Below are positions 1,877 through 59,037 of a stretch of DNA of 64,000 nucleotides, piece by piece. Below the pieces are notes generated by a model. The model did no database searches and was not told the origin of the DNA. It saw only the letters and a program-made list of their open reading frames with translations. This stretch comes from Halanaerobium saccharolyticum. GTDB taxonomy: Bacteria > Bacillota > Halanaerobiia > Halanaerobiales > Halanaerobiaceae. The stretch lies in NCBI RefSeq assembly GCF_003053565.1, contig NZ_QAXS01000010.1:1-64000 (forward strand). Reading direction: 5' to 3'. Within the stretch, counting starts at the first letter, position 1; the number at the start of each line of letters is the position of its first letter. The position numbers and the translations under genes were made by a program.

Positions 1877-3862
1877 TTAAGCTACAATATCCCTTACATC
1901 AATAATCAGAGCAACATCACCATCACCAATAATTGTTGCACCACTGATATATTCAGTGTCCTGCAGATAATTACCGAGAGATTTGATTACAATCTCCTGC
2001 TGATTTAGAAGTTCCTCTACTATCAAGCCAATAAAACGATCTCCACTCTTTAAAATAACAACTGAGAGATCCTCTTCTGACTTTTTAAATGAATCAATGT
2101 TTTTACTGCCGAAAATTTCGGAAGCAGAAACAAGTGGAATTGTATTTTTCCTTAAAACAATTACATCTTTTCCTCTTACCTTTTTGATATTTTCAGGACT
2201 GATAGTAAGGGTTTCACTTACAGCATTGAGAGGAATTGCAAATGTATCTCCATCGACTGTAATCATCAGTGCTTGAGTTATGGCCAGAGTTAGCGGCAGT
2301 GAAATAGTAAAAGTGCTGCCCTTTCCTAGCTCAGATTCAATACTGATCTGACCATCAAGTTTTTTAACTACATTCCGAACTATATCCATTCCAACTCCTC
2401 GGCCCGATACATCGGTAACTTCGGAGGCAGTACTAAAACCGGGATGGAAAACAAAATCAAGAATATCTCTTCTCTCCAGCTGCTCAAGTTCTTCTTCTCC
2501 GACAATCCCCTTTTCTACTGCTTTGCGACCGATTTTATCGGCATCAATACCGGCACCATCATCCTTAACCTCTATGATGATTTCACTACCCTTCTGGTAG
2601 GCTCTAAGTTCTATTCTGCCTTCCTCATCCTTACCCTTGGCCTTTCTGGCTTCCGGACTCTCTATTCCATGATCAATGGCATTTCTGAGCAGATGAGTGA
2701 GCGGATCAGATAATTCATCAATAATTGAGCGGTCCAGCTCAGTTTCCTGGCCTTCCATAATAAAATCAATCTCTTTATCCATTTTATTAGAAAGATCTCT
2801 GATCATCCTGGGAAATCTGCTGAACATTACTCCCACCGGTACCATTCTAATCTGCATTACAATATGATGTAATTCCATTGTCACCCGATCTAACTGGGGA
2901 ATTATCTCATTAAATTTTGATTTTTGAATGTCTAGTGACTGGAGTCGGGTTTTATTGATTAATAATTCTCCCACCATATTCATTAAAGTATCAAGTTTTG
3001 AAATATCAACCCGAACAGTCGAACTACTCTGGAAAGAATTAACTTTATGTTCTGCGTGCAGACTTCCCTCATCACTTTCGGAACTTTCTTCTTCCAGTTC
3101 CAGGTTTTCTATTTCATTAAAATTAGGAACATCTGCTCCTGATACCTCTGCTACTTCCTCTTTAAACTCTTCAGCAGGCAGCCAGCTTAAAGCATAAATA
3201 TCAAGTTCGGAAATTGGTTCCTCCGAATTTTCGATTTCTTCTTTTGCCGGCACAGATTTAAACAGAGTTCCAATCTCTTCTATCTTCTTAAGAACCATAA
3301 AGGCCCTTACACTCTGAAAATCCTGCTCATCTAGAACAACTTTTAAATGATAAATTCTTTCCTTATCTTTCTTTCTTTTTTCCAGCTCTTCTTTTTCAAC
3401 CTGACTAAGCTGCAGGCTGAAGTCAGCTTCTTTAGCTTCTAAATCATCCTGATTATTATCCATTTTAGCAGCAGCTTGTTGACCATAATTAGCCAGCTCT
3501 TTAATAAAACCTGCTAAATTTACATCGGCAGGTTCTTCTCCCTCATTTTCTCTAATTTTTTCTACTAAAAACTGAATATTATCCAGCCCCTGCAGCAGCA
3601 GATCAATAAAATCTGTTCTAACTTCAAGTTTACCTTCTCTAACTCGATCAAGCATATTTTCCATCTTATGAGTTAGTTCAGTTAAGTTTTCAAAGCCCAT
3701 TGTTGCAGCCATTCCTTTAAGCGAATGAGCTGCCCTAAATACTGCATCTATGGTTTCTTTATCCCCTGGATTATTTTCGAGGGTTAAGATACCGTTGTTC
3801 AGAGTTTCAACATATTCTTTTGCCTCATCAAAAAACATATCTAAATAACCATTGTCCTGCAT
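1877..3862 (-). CDS. cheA: Chemotaxis histidine kinase CheA
   Basis: Central kinase of chemotaxis, which autophosphorylates and passes phosphate to CheY/CheB. The 661 residues carry an N-terminal Hpt domain with the phosphorylated His in AAHSLKG (His46), a short P2-like region, a dimerisation helix pair (about 285-345), a HATPase domain with NAIDHGIE (N box) and DDGAGID and GRGVGMD (G boxes), and a C-terminal CheW-like domain (about 530-661). The start has an AGGGGGG ribosome site. It sits between the FliT/FlgN-like gene and a receptor gene, in the operon that begins near 5726. No cheY, cheB or cheW is present here, so the rest of the pathway must lie elsewhere. Confidence 0.97.
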   Translation of the reverse strand: MQDNGYLDMFFDEAKEYVETLNNGILTLENNPGDKETIDAVFRAAHSLKGMAATMGFENLTELTHKMENMLDRVREGKLEVRTDFIDLLLQGLDNIQFLVEKIRENEGEEPADVNLAGFIKELANYGQQAAAKMDNNQDDLEAKEADFSLQLSQVEKEELEKRKKDKERIYHLKVVLDEQDFQSVRAFMVLKKIEEIGTLFKSVPAKEEIENSEEPISELDIYALSWLPAEEFKEEVAEVSGADVPNFNEIENLELEEESSESDEGSLHAEHKVNSFQSSSTVRVDISKLDTLMNMVGELLINKTRLQSLDIQKSKFNEIIPQLDRVTMELHHIVMQIRMVPVGVMFSRFPRMIRDLSNKMDKEIDFIMEGQETELDRSIIDELSDPLTHLLRNAIDHGIESPEARKAKGKDEEGRIELRAYQKGSEIIIEVKDDGAGIDADKIGRKAVEKGIVGEEELEQLERRDILDFVFHPGFSTASEVTDVSGRGVGMDIVRNVVKKLDGQISIESELGKGSTFTISLPLTLAITQALMITVDGDTFAIPLNAVSETLTISPENIKKVRGKDVIVLRKNTIPLVSASEIFGSKNIDSFKKSEEDLSVVILKSGDRFIGLIVEELLNQQEIVIKSLGNYLQDTEYISGATIIGDGDVALIIDVRDIVA

Positions 3863-28618: not shown

Positions 28619-29656
28619 TTATGCACTTTTTATTTCTGCGAGTTCCTCACTGATTCTTGATAAATTCTTACCATAACGAAGATCATCTCTTAAATCTGTC
28701 AGAACCTTGTCCAGAACCTTCAATTCCTGCATTAATTCCTTTTCTTCTGCAGTTGTATCGATAATATCTTTGATTCCACCATTATTAATGATAATCCTTT
28801 TATCTCCCATTAAAGCCAGAATTGGATCATGGGTGGCCATCAGCACAATTTTTTCCTCTCCCACCAGCAGCTCCAGCGCTTTTTCGCGGTCTATACCGGC
28901 ATTTTCAATCTCATCAATCAAAATAATTGGAGAGGAACTTAAAATTGCAGTATCTGCAATCATCAGGGCCCGTGACTGACCTCCACTCAAACTGGTAATC
29001 TGAGCCTCGCGGCCAAACTGTTCTCCAGCCAGTTGATTGGCCTCTCTAAAAATTCTTTCCACAACTTCTGCCTGATTATCAATTAAGCGGCTCTCTGCAT
29101 GCAGATTCAAAAATTCGATTACCGACAGATCCATGACAAAATTCATATTCTGTGAGAGCTGAGCAACCAGTTTTTTACCGCCGGTAAAGCGCCACTTTTT
29201 ATCAGGCACCTCATCATTGATTAAAATTTGTCTTTCAGTCGGAGTATCCCCCTGAGCAGTCCATTCTATATCTGCCAGCAGTCTACTTTTACCGGAGCCG
29301 GTAGGACCAACAATCGAAATTATCTCTCCACTGTGAATATCCAGCTTCTCATAATTTTCTTTTTCGCCATCCTTATTATTCCCGGCCAGAATGGAAAGTT
29401 TGGCGACAATCGAATCATTTTCACCCAGAAATTCCTGCATATTTCTGATGTGAGAAGATAGACTATCGGCAAACTGGTCCAGATCAAATACCACATCTTC
29501 CATTTCTTCAATGGTTAATTCTGAAAAAATTTCCTTTAAAGTTTTTTCTTTGTCATCAACAGCCAGCTTCTGGTCTTCAAAAAAGCTCTCTGTATAGGGA
29601 TATTCCTCTATAATTTCCTTGATGCTTGAATTCTTTAATTTATCTTTACTGATCAT
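28619..29656 (-). CDS. Soluble ABC-type ATPase with DUF1858-like N-terminus
   Basis: A 345-residue ATPase, third gene of an unrecognised operon. Residues 1-80 are helical and resemble the DUF1858/ScdA N-terminal fold (SIKEIIEEYPYTESFFEDQ). The rest is a full ABC ATPase: Walker A GPTGSGKS (117-124), signature LSGGQ (213-217), Walker B IILIDE (234-239) and H-loop His266. No membrane segment and no permease gene accompany it, so transport is unlikely; a mechanical or assembly role is inferred. Its start overlaps the GTPase stop codon, so the two are coupled. Confidence 0.8.
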   Translation of the reverse strand: MISKDKLKNSSIKEIIEEYPYTESFFEDQKLAVDDKEKTLKEIFSELTIEEMEDVVFDLDQFADSLSSHIRNMQEFLGENDSIVAKLSILAGNNKDGEKENYEKLDIHSGEIISIVGPTGSGKSRLLADIEWTAQGDTPTERQILINDEVPDKKWRFTGGKKLVAQLSQNMNFVMDLSVIEFLNLHAESRLIDNQAEVVERIFREANQLAGEQFGREAQITSLSGGQSRALMIADTAILSSSPIILIDEIENAGIDREKALELLVGEEKIVLMATHDPILALMGDKRIIINNGGIKDIIDTTAEEKELMQELKVLDKVLTDLRDDLRYGKNLSRISEELAEIKSA

Positions 29657-30351
29657 TATTCATCACCCAGTTCTATTTTTCTGACATTACCCAACTGATG
29701 TTCTTCACCAATTCTAGTTTCACCAAGGCAGTAAGAACACATAGCAGAAGGCATGGAAAATCTTAGTTTTTTACCGGTTACAGTGTCGATATGGTCATCT
29801 TGATCATAGAGCAGAGTTGAAAACTCAAAAGCTCCCTGACCGGTTAAACCATTAACATTCATTACCATTGCATCAGGATTAACTGTGCTCACCCGGGAGG
29901 CAAAAACTTCTCTTTCCGCCTGAGAAACAATATCTCCTTTAGTAATTACCACAATATCTGCAGTTTTCAGCATTGGGCCAATTTTTTTTGGGGTGTTAAT
30001 TCCACTTAAATTATCAATAACACAGATTGCCTTAATGTCCTTGATATAAGGGGAGCAGCGGTTGCACAAACCGGCACTTTCTGTAATTAACAGATCTAAA
30101 TCTCTTTCTCTACCCCACTGCACAACTTCTTCGATATTGCTCACAAAATAATGGTCAGGACAGAGGGAACCGGATAAACCCTTTTTGACCGGCACTCCTG
30201 CCTTACGGTAGAGTTCATCATCATCTGTATATAAACAGTCAAACTTAACCACCCCAACTTTTAATCCCTGCTGCTTAATTGCTTCTATTGTTTTTAAAAT
30301 AACAGCAGTTTTACCTGAGGAAGGTGGTCCTGAAAAAGTAACTAAATTCAT
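29656..30351 (-). CDS. HypB/UreG-like GTPase with cysteine motifs
   Basis: A 231-residue P-loop GTPase of the SIMIBI type. Walker A is GPPSSGKT (8-15), switch-like ESAG (91-94) and base-specificity TKGD (137-140). Cysteines cluster as SLCPDH (Cys64), LCNRC (Cys96, Cys99) and the C-terminal MCSYC (Cys205, Cys208), suggesting metal or Fe-S binding as in nickel metallochaperones. It overlaps both neighbours by a few bases. No hydrogenase or urease gene is near, so the client is something else. Function is inferred from family resemblance. Confidence 0.8.
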   Translation of the reverse strand: MNLVTFSGPPSSGKTAVILKTIEAIKQQGLKVGVVKFDCLYTDDDELYRKAGVPVKKGLSGSLCPDHYFVSNIEEVVQWGRERDLDLLITESAGLCNRCSPYIKDIKAICVIDNLSGINTPKKIGPMLKTADIVVITKGDIVSQAEREVFASRVSTVNPDAMVMNVNGLTGQGAFEFSTLLYDQDDHIDTVTGKKLRFSMPSAMCSYCLGETRIGEEHQLGNVRKIELGDE

Positions 30352-31556
30352 ACTGAAGCCACCTCCACAGCTTTGTTAAATTCTGCTTCCAGATCTCTTA
30401 ATAATTCACCTGGATTTTCTCCTCTTAAGAAATCCCATCCCGGCCACATAAACTGAGCCTTTTCGGGCAGTCCATTATCTACTTCCGGCAGCACACTCGG
30501 GAATAATCCCTGTTCAGCCAGAATCTTACCCATTTTTTCGGAAGCCATTAAATCAATTAAAGGCTGCATTTTTTCATTTTTCTCTTTTTTAGTCAGCATA
30601 AATATTGGCGAAACAATTGCTCCATCTTCAGGCCAGACAAACTCCATGTGGGGGAAGCGCTTTGCCATTCTGGTAAAGAAATAGGGCATGATTGTAATTG
30701 CAGGCTGATCATCAGCTTTGCGTCCACCCTCTTTAACCATCTGAGATGGGTGCAGGGCTTTTTTCATTGAGCGGCCGAGCTTCTGAACTCCTTCTCTGCC
30801 GTATACTTTATAAATATTTAATAAAATTGCATTAAAGAGGTCAAAGTCACTGACCGGGAGGCTGACACTGTTGGCAAATTCTTCGCTTAAAATTTCTTCC
30901 CAGCTTCTGGGGACCTCTCTCCCGTCTAATTCTTCTTTGTTTACCAGGAAAACTGCCGGCACAATACTTAAAACTGAGTAATCTCCCTCTGGATCAAGTA
31001 AATCAACACCTGCTTCAGTGAAATCACTATTCAGTTCTTTGATCCCAGTCGCATCTTTAAAAACATTCTGGCGGCGGAAGCGGTCCATTAAATCCTTATC
31101 AAAGAAAAGGTCAAAACCGGCAGAAATAAAGATATCCGAAAGTTCATCCGGAGATGTTATCTGGTCAAATCCATCCTGCAGCCACTCCAGTCCCTGAGAA
31201 GCTGATTTGAGATCAAGTTCAACCTCATAATCAAGTTCCTGGGAAGCTTTTTCCAGTTCCTCGGTCATCGGGATCTTCACCGGACAGGGTAAAGAGCCGG
31301 AGACTTTTATTTTAGCTCCACCTGTTTTTTGAGTCGAACTTTTTTCAATTTCTGCTTCCATCAGCTCTACCAGCTTCTCCAGATCCAGGTTTTTAAGTCC
31401 TGCCGCCTGCTTTAAAGTAATCTGTTTACCAAAACTCTTTCTCTTTGCCTCATCATCTAATTGATTAAAACCTTTATTAACCAGTACCGAAATAACTGCT
31501 GGATATTCCTCAGTTATCTCAAATAAATTTTTATTAACATCAATTTTTCTTTCCAT
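30348..31556 (-). CDS. Cytoplasmic binding-protein-like protein with DUF1858-like N-terminus
   Basis: A 402-residue protein, first gene of the operon with the GTPase and ATPase. Residues 1-65 resemble DUF1858 (NLFEITEEYPAVISVLVNKG, then ITLKQAAGL and LEKLVELM) but lack the usual cysteine. Residues about 85-390 look like a type-2 solute-binding fold of the iron-binding-protein class (GSLPCPVKIPMTEEL, DELSDIFISAGFD, SWEEILSEEFA). It has no signal peptide, so it works in the cytoplasm. I start at ATG 31556; a longer frame begins inside palindrome copy C. It probably handles a metal or anion with its operon partners; this is inference. Confidence 0.72.
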   Translation of the reverse strand: MERKIDVNKNLFEITEEYPAVISVLVNKGFNQLDDEAKRKSFGKQITLKQAAGLKNLDLEKLVELMEAEIEKSSTQKTGGAKIKVSGSLPCPVKIPMTEELEKASQELDYEVELDLKSASQGLEWLQDGFDQITSPDELSDIFISAGFDLFFDKDLMDRFRRQNVFKDATGIKELNSDFTEAGVDLLDPEGDYSVLSIVPAVFLVNKEELDGREVPRSWEEILSEEFANSVSLPVSDFDLFNAILLNIYKVYGREGVQKLGRSMKKALHPSQMVKEGGRKADDQPAITIMPYFFTRMAKRFPHMEFVWPEDGAIVSPIFMLTKKEKNEKMQPLIDLMASEKMGKILAEQGLFPSVLPEVDNGLPEKAQFMWPGWDFLRGENPGELLRDLEAEFNKAVEVASV

Positions 31557-31586
31557 TTTAACAAACACTCCTTTATATTTAATGGT

Positions 31587-31651
31587 ACCAGGTCCAAATG
31601 AGTCCATTTGGACCTGGTTTAATTAAGTTCATTTGGACCTGGTTCATTTGT
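31587..31651. repeat. Dispersed ACCAGGTCC palindrome, copy C, with extra half-site
   Basis: Thirteen-base arms (31587-31599 and 31606-31618) with the same core as copies A and B, followed by a half copy at 31629-31651 (TTCATTTGGACCTGGTTCA). This copy lies in the leader of the three-gene operon, so it may affect its expression. Confidence 0.7.
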
Positions 31652-31950: not shown

Positions 31951-32619
31951 ATGAGTGTAGTTAAAGAAATACCTTTTTTTAGTTTACTAACAGAAAAAGA
32001 ACTGGATTTAATTGATGAAATTGCCAGTGAAACTGAATTTAAAAAAGGAGAATATATCTTTTTTGAGGGTGAAGAAGGAGATAAATTTTATATTATTAAA
32101 AATGGTCAGGTCAAACTGACAAAAATGATCAAAAATGGAGATGAACAGATTTTAAATATTTTTAGTGACCATGATATAATTGCAGAAATAGTTGCTTTTG
32201 ATAAAGGTAATTATCCGGCATCTGCTGTAACAATGACCGATACTGAAGCTATTGTCTTTGATCAGTCTGAATTAGAAAATCTAATTTTAAAACATCCTTC
32301 AATTGGAGTTAAACTGCTGAGAGAAATGAGTGGACGCCTGCGCCGGGCACAGCAGAATGTAAGAGACCTGGCCTTAAAAGACAGCTCTGCCAGAGTGGCC
32401 GGACTTTTAATTTTTCTGGCTGAAAAATATGGCAAAAAGAAAAAGGACAGAATTATTTTAGATATTTCTCTAACCCAGCAGGAATTAGCCAGTATGATCG
32501 GCAGCAGTCGAGAAACTGTATCCCGGGTTCTGGGACAGTTCGAAAGTGAGGATCTGATTAAAACCTCCCGCAAAAAAATTATTATCTATAAATTAGATAA
32601 AATTAAAGCTTACACTTAA
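31951..32619 (+). CDS. Crp/Fnr-family transcriptional regulator, HcpR-like
   Basis: A 222-residue regulator. Residues about 8-125 form a cyclic-nucleotide-type effector domain (FEGEEGDKFYIIKNGQVKL); a dimer helix follows; the C-terminal winged helix has LTQQELASMIGSSRETVSRVL (recognition part GSSRETVSRV). It contains no cysteine, so it cannot bind an Fnr Fe-S cluster; heme-based NO sensing as in HcpR is plausible. Neighbouring hcp and hemerythrin genes with matching operators support control of nitrosative-stress genes. An AGAGGTGG site precedes the ATG. Confidence 0.87.
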   Translation: MSVVKEIPFFSLLTEKELDLIDEIASETEFKKGEYIFFEGEEGDKFYIIKNGQVKLTKMIKNGDEQILNIFSDHDIIAEIVAFDKGNYPASAVTMTDTEAIVFDQSELENLILKHPSIGVKLLREMSGRLRRAQQNVRDLALKDSSARVAGLLIFLAEKYGKKKKDRIILDISLTQQELASMIGSSRETVSRVLGQFESEDLIKTSRKKIIIYKLDKIKAYT

Positions 32620-32738
32620 AGGCAGCTTAATTAATTTTTTTGTTAGCTGTTTTACTTGCAAGAATCAAATAAATTTATATAATAATCTCAACAACCTTTT
32701 ATAAGCCTATAAGAATATAAGAAAGGGAGGTTGATATA

Positions 32739-32825
32739 ATGAGAGATTTTCTAATATCAGCTGTAATGGTGGGGATAGTAATAATTCCACAATTAGCTGA
32801 ATTGTACTTTTCTAAAAACAACTAA
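32739..32825 (+). CDS. 28-residue hydrophobic small protein
   Basis: ATG 32739 follows a strong AAGGGAGG site at nine bases and opens a 28-codon frame with one hydrophobic helix (MVGIVIIPQLAELYF) and a short basic tail. It is followed by a strong terminator. The helix could span or bind the membrane. I do not recognise a family, but ribosome site, frame and terminator together support a real gene, perhaps cotranscribed with the Crp/Fnr gene. Confidence 0.55.
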   Translation: MRDFLISAVMVGIVIIPQLAELYFSKNN

Positions 32826-32847
32826 GAAATAAACTAATGCAGAATTC

Positions 32848-32890
32848 AAAAAGGGTCCTAAACAGTTTTTGCTGTTCAGGACCCTTTTTT
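32848..32890. terminator. Strong bidirectional terminator
   Basis: AAAAAGGGTCCT...AACAG and CTGTT...AGGACCCTTTTTT form an 18-pair stem with one bulge, between the small-protein gene and the convergent pyrophosphatase. Confidence 0.9.
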
Positions 32891-32897
32891 AGTTATT

Positions 32898-33386
32898 CTA
32901 TTTATTTTGATAAGCTTTTTTGGACTCTTCAATTACTGCAAGTGCTTCTTCAACACCGGCCCAGCCGATAATATTTACTTCTTTTTCTTCTAAATTTTTA
33001 TAAACTGAAAAGAAATGCTCGTATTCTTTGAGCAGATGCTCTTCTAAATCATATAAGGTATTAGTATTTCTAAAACGCGGGTCATGTTCGGGAACTGTAA
33101 ATATTTTTTCATCTCTTCCCTTTTCATCTTCCATAATAAACATCCCAATTACTCTTGCAGTAATAATACAGCCAGGAAAGGTCGGAAATGTAGTTAAAAC
33201 CATTGCATCAAGGGGATCACCATCATCAGCCAAAGTTTCTTCTAAATAACCATAATCTGCTGGATAATAAACCGGTGAATACATTACCCGATCCAGTCTA
33301 AACTTCCCCTTTTCCTTATCATATTCATACTTGTTGTTGCTGCCCTTTGGTATTTCAACAAAAACATCAATTACATTATCACTCAT
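32898..33386 (-). CDS. ppa: Inorganic pyrophosphatase (family I)
   Basis: Hydrolyses pyrophosphate to phosphate in the cytoplasm. The 162-residue length and the signature DDGDPLDAMVLT with active-site aspartates identify family I; EIPKGSNNKYEYD at the start and YGYLEETLADDGD fit as well. A GGGGGAG site precedes ATG. It is a single gene with its own terminator. Confidence 0.96.
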   Translation of the reverse strand: MSDNVIDVFVEIPKGSNNKYEYDKEKGKFRLDRVMYSPVYYPADYGYLEETLADDGDPLDAMVLTTFPTFPGCIITARVIGMFIMEDEKGRDEKIFTVPEHDPRFRNTNTLYDLEEHLLKEYEHFFSVYKNLEEKEVNIIGWAGVEEALAVIEESKKAYQNK

Positions 33387-33456
33387 TTTTACTCCCCCAA
33401 TTATAAATTAAATATACTCTTTAATTAAATTTAGACAAAGATATTTTAAAGTTGTT

Positions 33457-34299
33457 CTAATTAATAAGTTCTGAAAGTCTTTCTGCCATCTGCGTAATTT
33501 GGTCAGCTGCATTATGTAGTTTTTCAGTCATTAATTTTTCGTTTTCAGTAAAAGATTCGACCTTCTGGTTCATTTTATCGATATTTTCTTTTGTATTTTC
33601 AGTTGACTGATTTAGATTATCTATAAAACCAGTAATCTCTTTGACTGAGGAGCCTGTCTCATCGGCAAGTTTTCTAATCTCATCAGCAACTACATTAAAC
33701 CCATTGGCATTGACATCAGCCCGGGCAGCTTCGATTGCTGCATTAAGGCCCAGCATTTTAGTCTGGTCAGAAACAGTTTTAATAAATTTAACTATTTCGT
33801 TTGTTTTCTCCAGATTAGCCTTGCTGTTTTCTGATGCCTGCTGTAATTTTTCTGCTGTCTGATCAAGTTCTGCTATATTTTGAGTGTTGCTGCTGCTAAT
33901 TTCTTTAATTGTTCCTCCGATATCAGCGGCCAGATTGCAGAGTTTATCTGCTTCTACTTCCATTCTATTTAACATTTCTTCTCTGGAGTTTACAATTTTA
34001 AAGAGAATTAAAGAAGTCTCAGAATCAATTATTTTTGTTTTTTGATCAGCTGCCTCTTTAACCAGCTCAGAAAGTTTTTTATTACCTGTAACCTCCAGTA
34101 TAACCTTTTCTCTATTTATTTTTAAAAGATCATTAAAATCTTTGTAGACTGAAATATTATTTTCCTCTGCCTTTAAAATCCCGGGAGCTTCCAGATTTTT
34201 GTCACAGATTCCAATAACTTTTACATCTTCCATATCTAAAAAAGTTTCTAAAATTGAAGCTCCACCGTCACCGGCCCCAATGATTCCTATATTAAGCAT
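33457..34299 (-). CDS. Soluble chemoreceptor with NAD(P)-binding-like Rossmann sensor
   Basis: A 280-residue cytoplasmic receptor. Residues 1-110 form a Rossmann-like domain ([19 protein letters not shown], then IGICDKN and [11 protein letters not shown]) as in dehydrogenases and CoA-binding proteins. Residues about 125-280 are a short methyl-accepting signalling domain whose tip reads [20 protein letters not shown] and [12 protein letters not shown]. No membrane segment or HAMP is present. I use ATG 34299 after GGAGGA. It may couple redox or metabolic state to chemotaxis or to a dedicated kinase. Domain fusion is clear; the ligand is inferred. Confidence 0.85.
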
Positions 34300-34641
34300 A
34301 AATAATTCCTCCACTTATTAAATTTGATTACTTTACTAATATTTATTTCTAGGTCAGGATAATTAATCCTGCTTTTTGAACAGAATCAGAGAGGAATGGG
34401 CTTTAAACTCTGCTTAATTAATATATAACTTCATCTCTAAAAAATCAACACTTTTTGCCAAAAACTTTTTTTCACAATTAATTACGAAATTTCACTCTAA
34501 AATTATATGATAAAATGGACCTAATTTCAGGCTATTTTCTTTCAAATTTATTTAAAAGATCTTCGATATATGCTATAATAGAAATACTATTTTTAATTTT
34601 TTACATTTTATAATTCTTAAGGAATATAAGGAGGAAAGTAG
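34300..34641. other. Divergent promoter region between two receptors; no gene
   Basis: No coding frame seen. It holds an inverted repeat CAGGAT-N5-ATCCTG near 34354-34371 and a probable plus-strand promoter at 34551-34579. Confidence 0.6.
34551..34579 (+). promoter_or_regulatory. Promoter of the sCache receptor gene
   Basis: TTTAAA, 17 bases and TATAAT, 62 bases before the receptor ATG. An overlapping TTCGATAT with CAAA 15 bases upstream also resembles a sigma-D motility promoter. Confidence 0.5.
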
Positions 34642-36417
34642 ATGTTTTTTAAAAATTTGAGTATTGCTAAAAAAATCTTCTTAGTAATTGGGCTAAGTTT
34701 TTTAGTTTTAGTATTAATAATGGGATATTTTTTAAACTACCAATTTAATAAGCTCAGCCATGACAACACAGAAACCGTAAGTAGATATTTACTGGATTCA
34801 GAAAAAGAAAGAATTCAGCATGCAACAGAAACTGCTGCTGGTTTTATGGAAGAACTGGTGGCTGAACGCGAAAACAACCTCAGTTTAGAAGAATTAACTT
34901 CTCTAATCAGAACCTATAATCAGGACCTGGAATTTGGTGAGGTTGGTTACTTTTTTATTTATGACTCTGACGGAAATACAGTCTCATTACCACCAACACC
35001 TGAAATCGAGGGCACAAATCGCTGGAACCTGCAGGACGCAAATGGAAAATATATATTAAGATCTCTGGTTGAAGCCGCTAAAAGTGGGGGGGCTTTTGTA
35101 GATTATATTTACGCCAACCCTGATACAGGTGAAGAAGAAAATAAAATTAGTTATGTTGCCCCAATTGAGGGCACAAATTACCTCATCGGCGCTGGAACCT
35201 ATGCCGGCATAATTAATAGTGAAGTAAATTCTGTGCAGAATGAATTAGATGGTTTTATTGCTAATATTTCAAGTTCATTATTAATTTTCGCAGTAATTAC
35301 AGCTCTGATTTTTGCTTTAGTAATATTCTTTATTTCCCGCTACATTTCTAAAAATATAAATAAGATTTTAACTGGAATGGATCAAATGTCTGAAGGAGAT
35401 TTAACCTACAGATTGGATATTAGAAGTGAAGATGAAATTGGAAAACTTGCTCAGGCCTATAATCAAACTGCTTCTGCTCAGAAAAAAATGGTGGAAGAAA
35501 TTCAAATGGAAGTAAGTGAACTCAGCGCTCAAAGTGAAGAGCTTGCAGCTTCAGGACAGGAAGTAGAAAGAGCTGCTGAACAGGTAGGGGGAGCTATTGA
35601 AAATGTTGCCTCTGGAGCTGAAGAACAATCAGCCCAGATTTCTGAAACCAGCAGGAACTTACATCAATTGATTAGCAAGATTCAAAACACCAGAGAAAAA
35701 TCAAAAAAGATGGATCAATCTTCTGAGCAGGTAATAAAAAATGTTAAAACTGGTACCGAATCAATGCAGAGCTCAATTAAAGAGGTCAATAAAGTTAAGG
35801 ATAATTCTGCAGAAATTGGAGTTACTATCAATAATCTTGGGGATTTATCAGAAGAAATTGGAAATATTGTTCAACTGATTAATAATATTTCTCAACAGAC
35901 AAATTTACTGGCTTTAAATGCAGCTATTGAGGCTGCCAGAGCTGGTGAAGCTGGCCGCGGTTTTTCTGTTGTAGCTGATGAAATCAGACAGCTGGCTGAA
36001 GAGTCTGCCGAAGCAACAGATAATATTTCCCAGTTAATTGATAAGATTCAGGCTGGGGTCGATAATGCAGTTCAAAAGATGGATGGAACTGAAACTGCCG
36101 TCAACAGCAGTGTAGAAGTAATCGAAAATACCGGTGAAGTGTTCAATAATATTGAAAAAGCTGTTGCTAATTTAAGCAGTTTAATTACTGAAATTGACAG
36201 TGAAACCAGCGAAATGGCAGCTGTTAGTGATGATGTTAATAATATGATTAATAATGTAGCTGCAGTAAGTGATGAAGCAGCAAGCAATGCTGAAGAAGTT
36301 GCCGCTTCCAGTGAAGAACAGATTGCTTCTACTGAAGAAATTGTCTCCGCTGCCCACAGACTATCTGAAATGTCAGATAACCTGAAAAATATGATTGCTA
36401 ACTTTAAAGTAGAGTAA
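34642..36417 (+). CDS. Methyl-accepting chemotaxis protein with single Cache domain
   Basis: Membrane chemoreceptor of 591 residues. Membrane helices at about 10-30 and 205-228 bracket a single-Cache sensor (about 35-195) with [13 protein letters not shown] and [14 protein letters not shown], typical of small-acid sensors. HAMP follows (about 230-285), then a complete signalling hairpin whose tip reads [20 protein letters not shown] and [13 protein letters not shown]. Unlike the receptor at 28-1845 the descending helix is complete. Start ATG has AAGGAGG. It is monocistronic with its own terminator. Confidence 0.95.
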
Positions 36418-36451
36418 GAGTTAGCTACTCTAATTTAATAATTAAAACAAT

Positions 36452-36494
36452 TAACCCCCTGCCCAGGAGCAAAATTCTCCAGTCAGGGGGTTTT
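36452..36494. terminator. Bidirectional terminator
   Basis: AACCCCCTG with AGGAG in one arm pair with CTCC and CAGGGGGTT in the other; T-runs flank the plus-strand side. It separates the receptor from the convergent Ric gene. Confidence 0.85.
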
Positions 36495-36525
36495 GATATT
36501 AAGTTATACTATTTTGATTTATATT

Positions 36526-37239
36526 TTACTTTTTATTATTTTCCAGCCGGGCAAATAAAATATTGTTCTCCAGATGAATATGCTGGAAAAGATCAGATTC
36601 TAAATCTTCAAGCAGACTGTAGCATAGTTTAAATGAATTACAGGCGTCTTCGGGCAGCTGATAATCAGCTGTAACTTCTCTCAATTCTTTGATTATCTCA
36701 CCTGCTGTATCATGTTCAGTTTCTAATTCCAGAATTCCATTCAGAGTTTCTTCATTTTCGCCACCATTTTCAGCCTGTGAATACTTTATAATTAGAGGAA
36801 AAATTTCCTCTTCTTCTTTGATTAAATGTTCTTCAAGCTCCATTCTTAAAGTATTAAATAGACGGTGAACCTTTTTCAAAACCTGACCGTGCTTTTCTCG
36901 ATGGGCCCGCAGAATCTTTTTTGTCAGCTCTGAAAGCTGAGGCAGAGTCTGCTGTAAAAATCCGTGGTGTTTATCTATTATATATTCTATCAGCTGTGAC
37001 TGGGATAAATTCTTCGGGTCTTCTATTTCCTGATAATAGTCATTTTTGTCAGAGTAATTTTCATTTATCTCTTTCAGTATTTCTGCTGCCTTAGAATCAT
37101 CATTTAAATCTTCTTTAACAGCGAGCTTTAATTCTCGATCTCCGCCACAACAAAAATCAATCTTATTTTCCTTTAATATTTCTGCAGCACCCGGAAATTC
37201 CGTTACAATATTTCCAACTGTATCATTTAATTTAAACAT
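36526..37239 (-). CDS. ric: Iron-sulfur cluster repair di-iron protein (Ric/ScdA/YtfE)
   Basis: A 237-residue protein that repairs Fe-S clusters damaged by nitric oxide or oxidants. The N-terminal DUF542 domain carries the diagnostic CCGG motif (IDFCCGGDREL, about residues 28-38). The C-terminal hemerythrin-like domain carries the di-iron His/Glu set (HHGFLQQTLP, HLIKEEEEIFP, HIHLENNILF). It lies 51 bases after the second hemerythrin-type gene and is likely cotranscribed with it under the Crp-type operator at 38145. Confidence 0.93.
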   Translation of the reverse strand: MFKLNDTVGNIVTEFPGAAEILKENKIDFCCGGDRELKLAVKEDLNDDSKAAEILKEINENYSDKNDYYQEIEDPKNLSQSQLIEYIIDKHHGFLQQTLPQLSELTKKILRAHREKHGQVLKKVHRLFNTLRMELEEHLIKEEEEIFPLIIKYSQAENGGENEETLNGILELETEHDTAGEIIKELREVTADYQLPEDACNSFKLCYSLLEDLESDLFQHIHLENNILFARLENNKK

Positions 37240-37290
37240 TTTTTCACCTCTTTTGTAAAATTATATACTTTTAATTTATCAGCCTAAAAT

Positions 37291-38061
37291 TTAGTTAGCT
37301 GCCAGTTCCGCTTCCGGTGTAAAGCTGCAGTAACCAATCTGATCACTCTGAGCCTTTATTTCTTCCCACTTTTCCTCTGCAATCATATCTTTAGCTGTTG
37401 GATATAAAATATTATTTTCTTTAAAAATATGGTCTCTTAAAGTAACCACAACATATTCTGAATGCATCTTTAATTCTTCCTTAAACCGATCAAAATTCAT
37501 CTCGTCAGCATTTTCTGCCAGCTTCATTATTTCTTCCTTGTGGGGCCAGAGATCATCGTGCTCCATCCGCATAATTCTGGTTGGCCCTGTTACTCCGCCT
37601 TTATCCACCTCAGGGAAAAGAGTTTCTTCTTCTCTGGTGTGGTGTTTTTCTGTATCCAGCAATTTAGTTCCGATCTCTTTTAATTCCTCAAATAGAGGGT
37701 TATCTGCCTCAAATTTATTTAGCTTTTGAATTTCTGCATTTAATTCATCCAGACGATCTAATATTTTCAGAATTTCTTCATGTTCAGAAATTAAAGTACT
37801 TAAAGGATGGCCAACTGGAACATTAGCCTTCAATGCCTTTAATTCCTCTGCCATCGCTTCAATATGAGCAGTACAGAGGTGTCTTAATTCAGTTTCTTCT
37901 AAACCATCATTTATTAATTCCTGTTCAGCTTCAGATAATTCTTTAGCACTAATGCTGTTTATTAACTCCTGGGCCTCTTTTTTTACCTTTTCAGTTGCCT
38001 CACCACTATTTAATCTTTCTAAAAGATTCTTAAGTTCTTCTTTTCTTGTTTCTGCAGTCAT
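37291..38061 (-). CDS. DUF438/hemerythrin domain protein
   Basis: A 256-residue cytoplasmic protein. The N-terminal 65 residues match the DUF438 helical domain (LKNLLERLNSGE). The rest is hemerythrin-like with metal-ligand motifs HEEILKILDRL, HHTREEETLFP, RMEHDDLWPHK and HIFKENNILYP. Family members bind di-iron and respond to O2 or NO. It is the first gene of an operon with ric, and a Crp-type operator lies 84 bases before the ATG. Confidence 0.88.
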   Translation of the reverse strand: MTAETRKEELKNLLERLNSGEATEKVKKEAQELINSISAKELSEAEQELINDGLEETELRHLCTAHIEAMAEELKALKANVPVGHPLSTLISEHEEILKILDRLDELNAEIQKLNKFEADNPLFEELKEIGTKLLDTEKHHTREEETLFPEVDKGGVTGPTRIMRMEHDDLWPHKEEIMKLAENADEMNFDRFKEELKMHSEYVVVTLRDHIFKENNILYPTAKDMIAEEKWEEIKAQSDQIGYCSFTPEAELAAN

Positions 38062-38144
38062 TGTACTGCCTCCTTATATTAATTATATTTAAACTTGAGT
38101 AATTTACTATGTTTTAATTATGACATTAATTTTAAGGCAGTACT

Positions 38145-38158
38145 ATGACATATATCAC
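38145..38158. promoter_or_regulatory. Crp/Fnr-type operator upstream of hemerythrin-ric operon
   Basis: ATGAC-ATAT-ATCAC, same spacing and half-site design as 31713-31726 and 40127-40140. Confidence 0.65.
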
Positions 38159-38249
38159 ATAAATCATTATATTTTAAAATTAATTTACTGCTGTCTTCTG
38201 AGTTTAGGCTTGAAGATTAAGTTTTAAAATTAATGACTGCAATAAAAAA

Positions 38250-38278
38250 AGACCTGCCTACATAATGCAGACAGATCT
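38250..38278 (-). terminator. Terminator of hcp
   Basis: An imperfect stem (AGATCTGTCTGC and GGCAGGTCT on the minus strand) is followed by a TTTTTTT run, about 50 bases past the hcp stop. A separate GGTACC-based palindrome lies at 38306-38318. Confidence 0.65.
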
Positions 38279-38328
38279 CTAATAGGCATATTTACATTTT
38301 TCTCCAGGTACCCGGTACCCTCCTGGTT

Positions 38329-39999
38329 TTACTCACCAGCCATGATTGCGGCAACATCTTCTTTAACATCACCGGTTGGCTTAATATCAAACTTATCAAC
38401 CAATACATTAAGCACATTTTCGGAAACAAATGCTGGCAGTGTGGGTCCAAGACGGATTCCTTTGACTCCTAAGGATAGCAGTGCAAGTAATACTGCTACA
38501 GCTTTCTGCTCATACCAGGCAATATCATAAGAAATTGGGAGGTCATTAATATCATCTACACCCATAGCTTCTTTCAGCTGTAAAGCAATATAAGCTAAGG
38601 AATAAGAGTCATTACACTGACCTGCATCTAATACTCTTGGGATGCCACCGATATCTCCCAGGTCAAGCTTGTTGTAGCGGTACTTAGCACAACCAGCGGT
38701 TAGAATTACAGCATCTTCTGGTAATTCTTTAGCTACATCTGTAAAGTACTCTCTATCTTTAAAGCGGCCGTCACAACCACCCATTACTACAAAGCGGCCG
38801 ATATCTCCATTTTCAACAGCTTCAATCACCTTGTCAGCAACGCTCATTACTGTATTACGAGCATAACCACCAGGGATTGTACCTTCTTCTAACTGAACTG
38901 GAGAATCACAGGTTTTAGCCATTTCGATCAGCTCGGAGAAGTCTTTGCTTTCTCCTTCTTTACGGTCAGGAATATGAGTAACCTCAGGATATCCTGCCAT
39001 ACCTGTTGTAAAGATCCGATCCTTATATGAATCTTTAACAGGGGTAATACAGTTTGTTGTCATCAGGATTGGACCATTAAATGATTCAAATTCCTTATCC
39101 TGGTGCCACCATGAGTTACCATAGTTACCAACAAAGTGATCATACTTTTTGAAAGCCGGATAGGAGTTAGCAGGCAGCATTTCACTGTGAGTATAAACAT
39201 CTACTCCAGTACCTTCTGTCTGCTCTAATAACTCTTCCATATCTTTTAAGTCGTGACCACTGATTAGAATACCGGGGTTATCGCGAACACCAATATTTAC
39301 ATCAGTTGGCTCTGGGTGACCATAAGTAGAAGTATTAGCTTCATCTAAGAGAGCCATTGTTTCTACAGCCATCTCACCGGTTTCCATAACTAAACCTACA
39401 AGATCATCAACACTCATGCTGTCATCTGTTGTAGCAGCAAGACATTTTTGAGTAAATCTATCAATTTCTTCTTTATGCTTACCTAAAACTCTTGCGTGGT
39501 CACCGTAAGCTGCAATACCTTTAAGACCGTATGTAGCAAGCTCACGTAATGATCTAACATCAACATCTTCAGTTTCTAGAACCCCAACATCAGTACCCTT
39601 ATCATAATAATCGCTTACATCATCACTATACCAGGTAGCATGTTCAGGTAACTCACCACTAAATTCTTCACCGTGATTTTCTTTATATGCTTTTTCAAAT
39701 TCAGCCTTAACTTCATCTCTTAAAGCAAAAGATTCTTCAATTAAATCTTCAAATCTTTCAGCATCAAAGTTAGCATTAGTAATTGTGGCAAAAAGACCTT
39801 CCATAATAAATGGTGCAGTCTTATCTGACAGATCAACACCCTCAGCCTTAGCTTTTTCTGCATAAACAGAAATACCTTTGAGAACAAATACTAATAAATC
39901 CTGTAGATTAGCAACATCTGCATCCTTACCACAGACACCTCTTACAGTACAGCCTTCATTCTTTGCTGTTTCCTGACACTGATAACAAAACATGGACAT
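38329..39999 (-). CDS. hcp: Hybrid cluster protein (hydroxylamine/NO reductase)
   Basis: Hcp reduces nitric oxide or hydroxylamine with an unusual Fe-S-O hybrid cluster. The 556-residue length and N-terminal ligands [13 protein letters not shown] and VCGK (Cys5, Cys8, Cys17, Cys23) give the cubane site; later [35 protein letters not shown] and [10 protein letters not shown] supply the hybrid cluster ligands. An operator of the Crp type lies about 130 bases before its ATG. It is monocistronic. Hcp, Ric and hemerythrin genes adjoining a Crp/Fnr gene form a typical nitrosative-stress set. Confidence 0.97.
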
Positions 40000-46329: not shown

Positions 46330-47601
46330 TTAATTAACTAAATCTAAATCCCATTCTTTTTCCTGGCTCTGATCGGCGCTGAATAAGGACAGCTGTTCAC
46401 TTTCCTTTTCAGCCAGCCGGTTGTAAATAACCTCGCTCTCAAAAGGAACTGCGGCTGCATACTTGCCGTCACAGGTGATAAAGAAATTTGCCCGCTTTAA
46501 AACAATTCTCATCTTTTTTAAGTTATAATGGCTTAAAGTCTTTTCTTTTCTGGCCTTTACAATTTTAGCAGCTGAGCGGAGTCCAATCCCTGGAACTCTA
46601 AGCAGTATCTCATAATCAGCAGTGTTGACTTCTACCGGAAATTTATCCAGATTGTTTAAGGCCCAGTCAGCTTTGGGATCAATTTTTAAATCAAAATTTT
46701 CTCTGCCGGGAGTTAACAATTCTCCCGCCTTAAAACCGTAAAATCTCAATAACCAGTCTGCCTGATAGAGCCGGTGCTCGCGTTTTAGTGGTGGTCCTGG
46801 TAAAGCAGGTAAAAGTGAAGAATTATTAACCGGTAAATAGGCCGAATAATATACCCGCTTTAAATTAAAATGGTCATATAAGCCTTCTGATAAAGAAATA
46901 ATCTGCCTGTCTGATTCGGGGCTGGCCCCTACAATCAGCTGAGTTGACTGACCGGCCGGCACAAATTTATCTTTCAGCTTATATTTCTTGCGCTCTATAA
47001 TATTATTTTCTATTCCCTCTCCGATCCCCTTCATCGGAGCTAAAATTCCTGCTTTTTTCTTCTGGGGAGCCAGCTTTTCCAGGCTGCTTTCGCTGGGCAG
47101 CTCAATATTGACACTCATCCGATCCACCAGCAGTCCCGCCTGATAAATCAGTTTAAAATCAGCGCCCGGAATTGCTTTAAGATGAATATATCCCTGATAA
47201 TTATGTTTGTTGCGCAGAAGCTGCACAGTTTTTAGAAGCTGCTCCATGGTCCAGTCGGGATCTCTATTAACCGCTGAACTCAAAAACAGACCTTCAATAT
47301 AGTTGCGCTTATAAAAATCAACAGTCAGCTGGGCCACCTCTTCCGGAGTAAAAGAAGCACGCGGTCGATCATTGCTGGCCCTATTTACACAGTACTGACA
47401 GTCATAGATGCAGTAGTTAGTAAATAAAATTTTGAGCAGGGAAACACAGCGGCCATCATCAGTCCAGCTGTGGCAGATTCCGCCTGCGGCAGTATTGCCA
47501 AGACTCGAGCTGTCACCACGCCCACTGCTGCCGCTTGAAGAACAGGAAACATCATATTTAGCTGCGTCACTTAAAATTTCAAGTTTTTTCTGAAGATCCA
47601 T
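46330..47601 (-). CDS. Radical SAM DNA modification/repair protein (TIGR03916-type)
   Basis: A 423-residue radical SAM enzyme. The cluster motif is CIYDCQYC (about residues 63-70). A helix-hairpin-helix near residues 320-355 (VNTADYEILLRVPGIGLRSA) suggests DNA binding. It is the putative DNA repair/modification protein that normally pairs with the TIGR03915 family, here encoded 32 bases downstream but frameshifted. An N-terminal Ser/Gly-rich, His/Cys-containing segment (about 18-50) is usual in this group. Start ATG has AAAGGAA, modest. Confidence 0.88.
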   Translation of the reverse strand: MDLQKKLEILSDAAKYDVSCSSSGSSGRGDSSSLGNTAAGGICHSWTDDGRCVSLLKILFTNYCIYDCQYCVNRASNDRPRASFTPEEVAQLTVDFYKRNYIEGLFLSSAVNRDPDWTMEQLLKTVQLLRNKHNYQGYIHLKAIPGADFKLIYQAGLLVDRMSVNIELPSESSLEKLAPQKKKAGILAPMKGIGEGIENNIIERKKYKLKDKFVPAGQSTQLIVGASPESDRQIISLSEGLYDHFNLKRVYYSAYLPVNNSSLLPALPGPPLKREHRLYQADWLLRFYGFKAGELLTPGRENFDLKIDPKADWALNNLDKFPVEVNTADYEILLRVPGIGLRSAAKIVKARKEKTLSHYNLKKMRIVLKRANFFITCDGKYAAAVPFESEVIYNRLAEKESEQLSLFSADQSQEKEWDLDLVN

Positions 47602-48639: not shown

Positions 48640-49440
48640 TTACTTTAAGACAACAGCTGCTTCTGGACCATTAACTCTAAAGGTAAAGGTTTCAAGGAAG
48701 AATAATTCTACCTCATCACCATTTCTATCTTCATATCCTAGAGAAATGTCCTGACCAACTGTTAATTCAAAGTCTCCACCGCGCTCGGAAATTAATAGAC
48801 CTCTGTTGCCGAGATCAGGTACTAAGACAGCACCATTATCAACCATTTCTTCAACCTTACGCTTTAGTGGATAACCTTTATCATCTAATTCATAAAGCAG
48901 AGAATAAAGTTCAGGTCCTAAGAGTAAACGCTTGGATCCACCAACACTATTTTCTTCAAATAAGGTTAGCGCTCTCAAGAGACCAGAAATCAGTTCTTTT
49001 TCGCCACCGGAAACACTAACTTCATCATATTCTGAAGCCTCAACAATACCTTCAATTCCTACTTCATCAAGACCATAGAATACAGCTTTATTTTCAGCTT
49101 TAGCCAGTTTAGAAGCAGCATCAACTAAATCATCTGTGTCAACATCTTCTGCTCCTCTAGCCAGCGCTTCTATCTCACTGAGCTTCATTGTAAATGGAAC
49201 TTTTAATTCTACTAAAGGTAGAACCTCTCTGGTGGAATAAGTTACACCTTCCACATCTTCAATTCCTACCGGACTAAAGCGGCCGGTGTTTATTGAAGAA
49301 AGTTCTAAGCCTTTAGGTCCCAGAAAATCAACTTCCTTACGAGCCTTTAATTTCTGGCTCAGTACGTCAGTTGCCTCTTCATCTAAGAAATTCCAGGCTT
49401 CTGCTGCAAATGGTGCTAAAGAGCGTTTTAAAATATCCAT
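48640..49440 (-). CDS. Encapsulin shell protein, family 1
   Basis: HK97-fold protein that self-assembles into a protein nanocompartment. The 266-residue length and motifs LKRSLAPFAAEAWNFLDEEA, VDFLGPKGLELSSINTGR, KVPFTMKLSEIEALARGAEDVD in pieces, and C-terminal ELFFLETFTFRVNGPEAAVVL identify a family-1 encapsulin. It follows directly the ferritin-like cargo gene, whose stop adjoins its start. The shell would hold mineralised iron. Confidence 0.96.
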   Translation of the reverse strand: MDILKRSLAPFAAEAWNFLDEEATDVLSQKLKARKEVDFLGPKGLELSSINTGRFSPVGIEDVEGVTYSTREVLPLVELKVPFTMKLSEIEALARGAEDVDTDDLVDAASKLAKAENKAVFYGLDEVGIEGIVEASEYDEVSVSGGEKELISGLLRALTLFEENSVGGSKRLLLGPELYSLLYELDDKGYPLKRKVEEMVDNGAVLVPDLGNRGLLISERGGDFELTVGQDISLGYEDRNGDEVELFFLETFTFRVNGPEAAVVLK

Positions 49441-57813: not shown

Positions 57814-59037
57814 TTATTCCATTCCTAAAAATTCATTAATTTTATCTGCATGATAACCGGGTATAATCAAATGATGATTACCAATCGCATCATTTAAGAA
57901 ATAGTCCGAACTCTGCGGCAGCGATATTTTAAGCTGAGTCCTGCAGGCGTTGGGAGAATCCATATTTTCAATAATTTCTCCTTCTGCCACAAAATACTGC
58001 TCCAGTCCGGCTCCACCAATCTTAAATACTGTAACCGGCCCCTCTTCTAAAATACCCTGAATTCCAACTCCAATACCAGTTTCAAAGTGAGAGCGGATAA
58101 TATAATCCTTGCTGATATCTGTAGCTACAGTGCAGTGGGCAAAAAGAATCTCATCATTCTTTTTATCTATTGCCGCCGGGTTAGCCATAAAGGGCATCTG
58201 ACCGGTTAACTGATGGGCTAAAAACATGGTGAAAGCAGCCGGAACATCACCCTCACAGCCAGCAACCAGTCCTTCATTATTTAAAAGGGCCAGGGCCAGG
58301 CAGCCGGTGGTATTTAATTCCATTACAATATCAAAACAGCGAATTGTCAGTGCATCTAAGTCATTAGCATAAATTACTTCTTTTAAAGCCAGATAAATTT
58401 TTGCAGCCTCAACCAGGTCAGCTTCATTGCTCTCCACAATTTCTGCAGCATTTTCTAAGAAATCAGCTGCTATCCTTTTAGCCTTAGCAGAATCGACCTG
58501 CTCCAGAGCCTGATAAACTTCCTCAAGTTCGACATCCACAAATTCAGTCCCCCAGTGGTGAGCAGCATGCTGATAATCAACCTGACTTCCGATCAGCCAG
58601 TCTGAAGGCTTGCCAATAACTCCAAGTCTTGCCTCAGCAATTCGGTCCCTTACCTGCTTATAGGCAGCAAGTTCTTCAATTTCTCCAACCAAATCTTCCA
58701 TTTCTCCGTGCAGAATTTTACCATCCAGACCTTCAGCATTCAAAAAGCTCAATATTTCTAAAGCTGCCGGAAGCGAATTATGCAGCTCAGTCGCTAATAG
58801 GTAGGCCGGCTGGGGCAGATACTCAACATTTTCTGCAAAAATACTTTCTGAGCCCCCTGATTTAATAAAATTGATTGTTAAATCATATTCACCAAAATCA
58901 GTGAAGGGAATCTCATCAACCCTTATTTCTTCCAGTTCAAAGTTATCATTTAATACCTTATACTTATCCTCTAAAGTCTCATCTATTCTATCTTCATCAT
59001 GAATCTCAGACAGAATAGAAACCAGTGCTATTTTCAT
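57814..59037 (-). CDS. L-fucose/L-arabinose isomerase-family protein
   Basis: A 407-residue cytoplasmic protein resembling the fucose isomerase superfamily: DLTINFIKSGGSE at the N-terminus, GVIGKPSDWLIGSQVD in the middle, and the C-terminal FAHCTVATDI and FKIGGAGLEQYF segments that line the active site. It lies upstream of the Suf-like pair with a 26-base gap, but a functional link is unclear. The substrate sugar is not determined. GGAGGT precedes ATG. Confidence 0.8.
   Translation of the reverse strand: MKIALVSILSEIHDEDRIDETLEDKYKVLNDNFELEEIRVDEIPFTDFGEYDLTINFIKSGGSESIFAENVEYLPQPAYLLATELHNSLPAALEILSFLNAEGLDGKILHGEMEDLVGEIEELAAYKQVRDRIAEARLGVIGKPSDWLIGSQVDYQHAAHHWGTEFVDVELEEVYQALEQVDSAKAKRIAADFLENAAEIVESNEADLVEAAKIYLALKEVIYANDLDALTIRCFDIVMELNTTGCLALALLNNEGLVAGCEGDVPAAFTMFLAHQLTGQMPFMANPAAIDKKNDEILFAHCTVATDISKDYIIRSHFETGIGVGIQGILEEGPVTVFKIGGAGLEQYFVAEGEIIENMDSPNACRTQLKISLPQSSDYFLNDAIGNHHLIIPGYHADKINEFLGME

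What the first reader, a model, noticed from the sequence alone, without database searches (positions are those of the whole stretch)
33457..34299. Soluble chemoreceptor with a dehydrogenase-like Rossmann sensor
A GAGDGG dinucleotide-type motif at the N-terminus is fused to a short receptor signalling tip without membrane or HAMP parts. Sensing NAD(H) or an intermediate would give metabolic-state chemotaxis. It lies among stress genes and beside a membrane receptor.
Basis: partly seen in the sequence, partly recalled or inferred. Interest (0 to 1): 0.52.

Follow-up and report, generated by a model that had tools for sequence, protein, structure and literature searches.

The report
Soluble chemoreceptor with dehydrogenase-like sensor domain
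A bacterial chemotaxis receptor without membrane parts carries, instead of an ordinary sensor, a domain built like the cofactor-binding half of metabolic enzymes; the same domain is attached to many other signalling proteins, so it looks like a little-noticed internal sensor of the cell's metabolic state.

Summary
Window 34299→33457 (-) encodes a 280-residue protein without membrane segments: residues 1-92 form a Rossmann domain (Pfam GFO_IDH_MocA and NAD_binding_3 above cut-off), and the rest is a short chemoreceptor hairpin (MCPsignal, E 1.8e-24). It is no chance or assembly fusion: I held 66 distinct intact ORFs of this layout, and all 74 genomes with such a receptor that I tested also encode CheW. 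The domain lacks an enzyme's second half and is reused as input module on sigma-54 activators (one BkdR-like), PAS-HTH proteins, a PP2C phosphatase and an HD-GYP protein. In the model its last strand runs into one unbroken 101-residue hairpin helix, so ligand binding could move the signalling helix directly. Of 30 sigma-54 relatives examined, 16 sit beside succinyl-CoA ligase, fumarase or fumarate-reductase genes. Best reading: a cytoplasmic receptor sensing a dinucleotide-type ligand, most likely NAD(H), feeding CheA/CheW. The ligand is inferred, not shown; CoA-type ligands remain open. I found no description of the domain in the papers searched.

The parts
33457..34299 (-). Rossmann-MCP gene, 280 aa, ATG start, stop included
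34308..34312 (-). GGAGG ribosome-binding site, 8 bases before the ATG
   Evidence: read from the sequence
34024..34299 (-). Rossmann sensor domain, residues 1-92
   Evidence: Pfam; AlphaFold model of the domain pLDDT 96.4, pTM 0.88
34261..34278 (-). GAGDGG (GxGxxG) glycine loop, residues 8-13
   Evidence: G8 104, G10 103, G13 103 of 105 non-redundant domains
34201..34203 (-). D33, acidic residue at the end of strand 2 (position that favours NAD over NADP in relatives; recalled)
   Evidence: D in 100, E in 2 of 105
33721..34023 (-). First signalling helix, residues 93-193, continuous with the Rossmann domain
   Evidence: AlphaFold model
33697..33726 (-). Hairpin turn [10 protein letters not shown], residues 192-201; differs from the GRGF turn of the other 11 receptors found in this genome
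33460..33705 (-). Second signalling helix, residues 199-280
   Evidence: AlphaFold model; MCPsignal
1877..3862 (-). CheA on the same contig, the likely downstream kinase
   Evidence: Hpt, P2, H-kinase_dim, HATPase_c and CheW domains

Best explanation
A cytoplasmic chemoreceptor whose input is a stand-alone, non-catalytic Rossmann domain. The domain most likely binds an NAD-type dinucleotide, reading redox state or NAD(H) occupancy. Shown here: the fusion, its wide conservation, the predicted fold, the conserved binding loop, the absence of an enzyme's second domain, and CheA/CheW in the genome. Inferred: ligand identity, helix coupling (from a monomer model), and effect on CheA.
For: Pfam NAD-binding matches above cut-off. 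Domain model pLDDT 96.4; best structural matches include NAD-bound Gfo/Idh enzymes (GenD2 with NAD, Z 12.4, rmsd 2.9, 106 aligned; KanD2 with NADH) and acylating acetaldehyde dehydrogenases (Z 12.3 and 12.2). The family profile matches acetaldehyde dehydrogenase (7.7e-8), inositol dehydrogenase (5e-5) and the NADH sensor Rex (2.7e-4) by sequence. GxGxxG and D33 kept in 95-99% of 105 domains with mean column identity 40%. Single helix 93-193 in the model, and a narrow distance from domain to tip: 111, 115, 117, 118 or 121 residues in the 55 of 66 long receptors that could be measured. CheW in all 74 Rossmann-MCP genomes among 78 tested. The same module sits on other outputs; 16 of 30 sigma-54 relatives lie beside C4-dicarboxylate or methylmalonyl-CoA pathway genes and one lies 21 bases after a nicotinate phosphoribosyltransferase gene.
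Against: No ligand was observed or docked. CheW is common anyway (337 of 398 genomes), so co-occurrence is weak evidence. Residue 11 in the glycine loop is Asp here but Lys or Arg in 57 of 105 relatives, which may mean ligand differences. The hairpin turn departs from all 11 other receptors found in the genome, so its place in the array is uncertain. Only a minority of the genus carries the gene (3 of 12 genus genomes, own included). The neighbours of the receptor genes are not conserved. The model is a monomer (full-length pTM 0.55), so the receptor dimer was not modelled.
Confidence: 0.55

Rival explanations
1. The domain senses coenzyme A or an acyl-CoA rather than NAD(H). Its nearest sequence relatives are acylating acetaldehyde dehydrogenases, which use both NAD and CoA (recalled), and several sigma-54 relatives sit by acyl-CoA pathway genes.
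For: Best PDB sequence match acetaldehyde dehydrogenase 7.7e-8; weak CoA_binding Pfam matches below cut-off; neighbours succinyl-CoA ligase, methylmalonyl-CoA mutase and phosphate butyryltransferase; Lys/Arg at loop position 11 in 57 of 105.
Against: The match covers only the NAD-binding half of those enzymes; D33 is kept in 100 of 105, a residue that in relatives binds the ribose of NAD (recalled); other neighbours (fumarase, NAD biosynthesis) are not CoA enzymes.
Confidence: 0.2
2. The domain senses a small metabolite (keto acid, aldehyde or dicarboxylate), with NAD bound as a fixed structural cofactor.
For: Neighbour pathways differ between sigma-54 relatives (dicarboxylates, branched-chain amino acids, other oxidations), as expected if each reads its own substrate.
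Against: The domain of about 92 residues has no substrate domain; the conserved surface is the dinucleotide loop. In many relatives a PAS domain is present and could read the substrate instead.
Confidence: 0.15
3. The Rossmann domain is only a dimerisation or protein-docking scaffold and senses nothing directly; signal comes from a partner protein.
For: Some Rossmann-type input domains take signals from partner proteins: the start of the abstract of PMC9650030 (seen in the listing) reports that RtcAB bind the CARF domain of RtcR.
Against: Glycine loop and D33 would not need 95-99% conservation in a mere scaffold.
Confidence: 0.08

Closest known systems
Soluble chemoreceptors of the YfmS size class (Bacillus subtilis YfmS, PDB 9a72)
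   Same: Soluble, 286 residues, signalling part superposes at rmsd 1.4 over 170 residues; PMC7542364 (passages read) calls YfmS a soluble chemoreceptor.
   Different: The YfmS sequence itself was not held.
Gfo/Idh/MocA oxidoreductases and acylating acetaldehyde dehydrogenases (N-terminal NAD domain)
   Same: Fold, glycine loop, acidic residue after strand 2 (Gfo/Idh).
   Different: No C-terminal substrate domain and no EKP motif in the window protein; the chain continues as signalling helices.
Rex redox repressors
   Same: A Rossmann domain used as a sensor; weak sequence match 2.7e-4.
   Different: Rex has a winged-helix DNA-binding domain and represses genes (recalled); here the output is a chemoreceptor hairpin.
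BkdR-type sigma-54 activators
   Same: The relative at L112 has the same N-terminal domain and the gene order spo0A, phosphodiesterase, DUF2627-like, EBP, ptb (first three named by eye; the B. subtilis order is recalled).
   Different: Output is transcription with two PAS domains between; PMC4428206 (passages read) names only PAS/PAC input domains for BkdR of B. thuringiensis.

Membership tests
Chemoreceptor (MCP) | MCPsignal domain above curated cut-off | tested here: met
   86.9 bits against 34.6
Chemoreceptor (MCP) | Antiparallel helical hairpin with conserved tip ([14 protein letters not shown]) | tested here: met
   Model helices 93-193 and 199-279; N186, I189, E190, G200, F201 and V203-A205 invariant and R193 nearly invariant in 46 aligned relatives
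Chemoreceptor (MCP) | Common GExGRGF hairpin turn | tested here: not met
   DVNANGF here; the 11 other receptors found in the genome end the turn in GRGF. A variation at the turn, not a feature that defines the family
Chemoreceptor (MCP) | CheA and CheW in the genome | tested here: met
   CheA in the window; 4 CheW-domain matches in the genome
Chemoreceptor (MCP) | Methylation sites and adaptation | not tested
   No site search was made
Gfo/Idh/MocA oxidoreductase | N-terminal NAD-binding Rossmann domain | tested here: met
   28.4 bits against 24; folds
Gfo/Idh/MocA oxidoreductase | EKP motif (recalled) and C-terminal substrate domain | tested here: not met
   Absent from the sequence; residues 93-280 are receptor helices. 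Hence not filed as an oxidoreductase
Rex redox sensor | Winged-helix DNA-binding domain plus Rossmann domain | tested here: not met
   No such domain
Rex redox sensor | NADH/NAD+ binding | not testable with these tools
   Needs a binding assay
YfmS-type soluble receptor | Same N-terminal domain as YfmS | tested here: inconclusive
   9a72 aligned only over the signalling part and is not among the 50 rows shown for the N-domain

The most novel reading that the evidence does not exclude
This is a widespread but unnamed intracellular sensory domain of this phylum (by its genera, Bacillota in the broad sense), comparable in use to PAS or GAF, that reads the NADH/NAD+ state and plugs the same signal into chemotaxis, sigma-54 transcription (BkdR-like and propionate or fumarate pathway activators), PP2C and HD-GYP outputs, in receptors by direct helix continuation from the cofactor pocket. 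Anaerobes would then steer swimming and catabolic gene expression by one redox reading.
Probability: 0.33. Interest if true: 0.76.

Novelty: new variant of a known kind. Interest (0 to 1): 0.6.

Why it matters
Ligands are unknown for most chemoreceptors, and energy or redox taxis is usually explained by PAS-FAD receptors (recalled). A receptor that binds NAD(H) itself would be a direct route from metabolism to swimming. The same module on sigma-54 activators gives a testable guess for the unknown input of BkdR-like proteins and for regulators of propionate oxidation in anaerobes. The domain is small, conserved and soluble, so the ligand question is open to simple experiments.

Tried and rejected
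Chance fusion or assembly error: rejected, because 66 distinct intact ORFs have the layout. Member of the oxidoreductase family: rejected, second domain absent. Identity with YfmS: not supported, though the YfmS sequence was not held. PrdR as a relative of the domain: suggested by an NCBIfam match of L128; tested on the 9 readable ORFs out of 12 fetched PrdR-like loci (only 2 of the 12 loci exceed the PrdR cut-off): no match to the domain profiles, and several N-termini read by eye like CBS repeats; rejected. Conserved neighbours of the receptor gene as a clue to the ligand: led nowhere; only local patterns such as a place between spmB-like and rluB-like genes in some genomes. CheW co-occurrence as proof of function: weak, since 337 of 398 genomes have CheW. 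Heptad-step test of the helix length: length classes are few, but a step of 7 holds only between 111 and 118; mini-receptors do not fit. Plasmid collection: one hit, in a 2.6 Mb record. Literature: ten searches; none of the titles and abstract starts listed describes a Rossmann-type chemoreceptor, two gave zero papers, and most subscription papers are not held.

Full report
WHAT IS THERE. The open frame at 33457-34299 on the minus strand encodes 280 residues from an ATG with a GGAGG eight bases upstream. Pfam places MCPsignal at 138-278 (1.8e-24) and two NAD-binding Rossmann families, GFO_IDH_MocA (2-90) and NAD_binding_3 (8-91), at the other end, all above their curated cut-offs. No NCBIfam model reached its cut-off. 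No membrane segment is predicted by hydropathy. The assembly (3.2 Mb, 94 contigs) holds one such gene; the 11 other matches share essentially only the signalling part. Named relatives are a Halanaerobium MAG (98%) and H. kushneri (85%).

NOT AN ACCIDENT. The N-terminal domain was found in 20 of 61 related genomes (the weakest hits, L031, L032 and L034, read as ordinary dehydrogenases), and by profile in 127 of 398 genomes of the phylum at E 1e-6 (the weakest hits there probably include full-length enzymes). From the loci fetched I held 144 distinct homologous ORFs: 66 long soluble receptors like the window's, 14 receptors with an extra insert of about 200 residues, 9 mini-receptors, 40 sigma-54 activators with PAS, 1 without, 8 PAS-HTH proteins, 1 PP2C/HATPase, 1 HD-GYP, and 4 others (a frameshifted receptor, two short ORFs, one full enzyme) (Pfam of representatives). 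A tree of 105 domains groups these layouts with 9 changes where 7 is the least possible and shuffled labels need 52 (114 columns only, many forks unresolved). 64 rows, nearly all receptors, form one supported branch; three long receptors (L107, L122, L173) fall outside it. So the fusion to receptors is old and mostly inherited.

THE BINDING SITE IS KEPT. In 105 non-redundant domains G8 is kept in 104, G10 in 103, G13 in 103 and Asp33 in 100 (Glu in 2); mean column identity is 40%. Exceptions are L030, L114, L117, L118, L127 and L198, plus L197, whose domain start lies beyond the contig end. Against a simple NAD story, loop position 11 is Lys or Arg in 57 of 105 and Asp in the window. Position 92, at the end of strand 5, is Asp or Glu in 82 of 105.

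STRUCTURE. AlphaFold gives a confident domain alone (pLDDT 96.4, pTM 0.88) and a full-length monomer with pLDDT 85 and pTM 0.55: strands 2-7, 26-32, 65-69 and 88-91, then one helix 93-193, a turn, and helix 199-279. Structural matches of the domain are Gfo/Idh enzymes, several with NAD bound, and acylating acetaldehyde dehydrogenases (Z 12.4 to 12.2 at the top). A profile search of PDB sequences gives acetaldehyde dehydrogenase 7.7e-8, inositol dehydrogenases from 5e-5 and Rex 2.7e-4. In 55 of the 66 long receptors whose motifs could be located, the distance from the conserved Thr71 to the tip Asn is 111 (9), 115 (13), 117 (3), 118 (29) or 121 (1). Few length classes and no sign of a floppy linker agree with direct coupling, but do not prove it.

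SIGNALLING PARTNERS. CheA lies in the same window (1877-3862), and the genome has four CheW-domain matches. Of 78 genomes tested, 77 have CheW; the one without (G007) has no such receptor, and all 74 with a Rossmann-receptor (one of them frameshifted, G039) have it. Since 337 of 398 genomes in the phylum have CheW, this is consistent rather than strong. The window's receptor has the turn DVNANGF where the 11 other receptors found in the genome end in GRGF; whether it packs normally into arrays is unknown.

WHAT THE RELATIVES SAY. I examined neighbours of 30 of the 41 sigma-54 relatives. Eight have succinyl-CoA ligase genes next to them (seven of these also methylmalonyl-CoA mutase), six have fumarase, five a fumarate reductase or succinate dehydrogenase set: 16 of 30 together. 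Three have branched-chain amino acid genes (ptb or an amino acid dehydrogenase), one (L112) in the order I recall for bkdR of B. subtilis. One lies 21 bases after a nicotinate phosphoribosyltransferase gene. Representative neighbours were checked by NCBIfam; the others, including the reductase subunits and most copies, were named by eye or by similarity to those. These are pathways where the redox poise limits flux, which suits an NAD(H) signal; many also handle CoA esters, which suits the rival.

WHAT IS KNOWN. The survey of sigma-54 activators in Clostridiales (PMC6615313, passages read) names PAS, GAF, HPr, PrpR_N, ACT, CBS, iron-sulphur, V4R and receiver domains as inputs, not a Rossmann domain. 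PMC4428206 (passages read) gives BkdR only PAS/PAC domains. PMC4324140 (passages read) describes PAS-sigma-54 regulators in a syntroph. Ten searches of open papers listed nothing on a Rossmann chemoreceptor; subscription papers are mostly not held, so this is not proof of absence. The soluble receptor YfmS has the same size and signalling part, but eleven soluble receptors of about that size from Bacillaceae-like and Paenibacillus-like genomes lack the domain.

VERDICT. The architecture is certain and the NAD-type binding site probable. NAD(H) as the signal is the best guess (0.55 for the whole chain); CoA-type ligands are the chief rival. The finding matters less as one odd receptor than as a member of a reused, apparently undescribed input module.

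Noticed in passing
L021-L029 (for example L137:7021-7692): Mini-receptors of about 213-231 residues in relatives of the same class: the same Rossmann domain plus only about 105 residues of signalling hairpin, shorter than any receptor class I recall.
   Followed up: partly
L109, L111, L126 and 11 more ORFs: Receptors of about 490 residues with the Rossmann domain, an unassigned insert of about 200 residues and an MCP part; by eye the insert resembles the N-terminal domain of the soluble receptors at L207-L218.
   Followed up: partly
L020, 986-1857 (G039): In a single-contig genome the Rossmann-receptor gene is split into two overlapping ORFs by a frameshift; pseudogene or sequencing error.
   Followed up: no
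L078 and about six similar loci: The receptor gene lies between a spore-maturation (SpmB-like) gene and a pseudouridine synthase (RluB-like) gene (names by eye).
   Followed up: no
31951-39999: Crp-type regulator, pyrophosphatase, two receptors, ScdA/hemerythrin, DUF438/hemerythrin and a Prismane-family protein (by eye hybrid-cluster protein) lie together; looks like a nitrosative-stress neighbourhood.
   Followed up: partly
48640-49440 (-): Encapsulin shell protein (Linocin_M18, 249 bits); its cargo was not looked for.
   Followed up: no
30348-31607 (-), 29656-30351 (-), 28619-29656 (-): DUF1858 fused to a solute-binding-protein domain, followed by a CobW/HypB-type GTPase and, by eye, an ABC-type ATPase; an unusual trio.
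   Followed up: no
46330-47601 (-): Radical-SAM-like protein with a helix-hairpin-helix motif.
   Followed up: no
57814-59037 (-): A 407-residue ORF without any Pfam match at 1e-5, next to what reads by eye as a Suf-type ABC ATPase.
   Followed up: no
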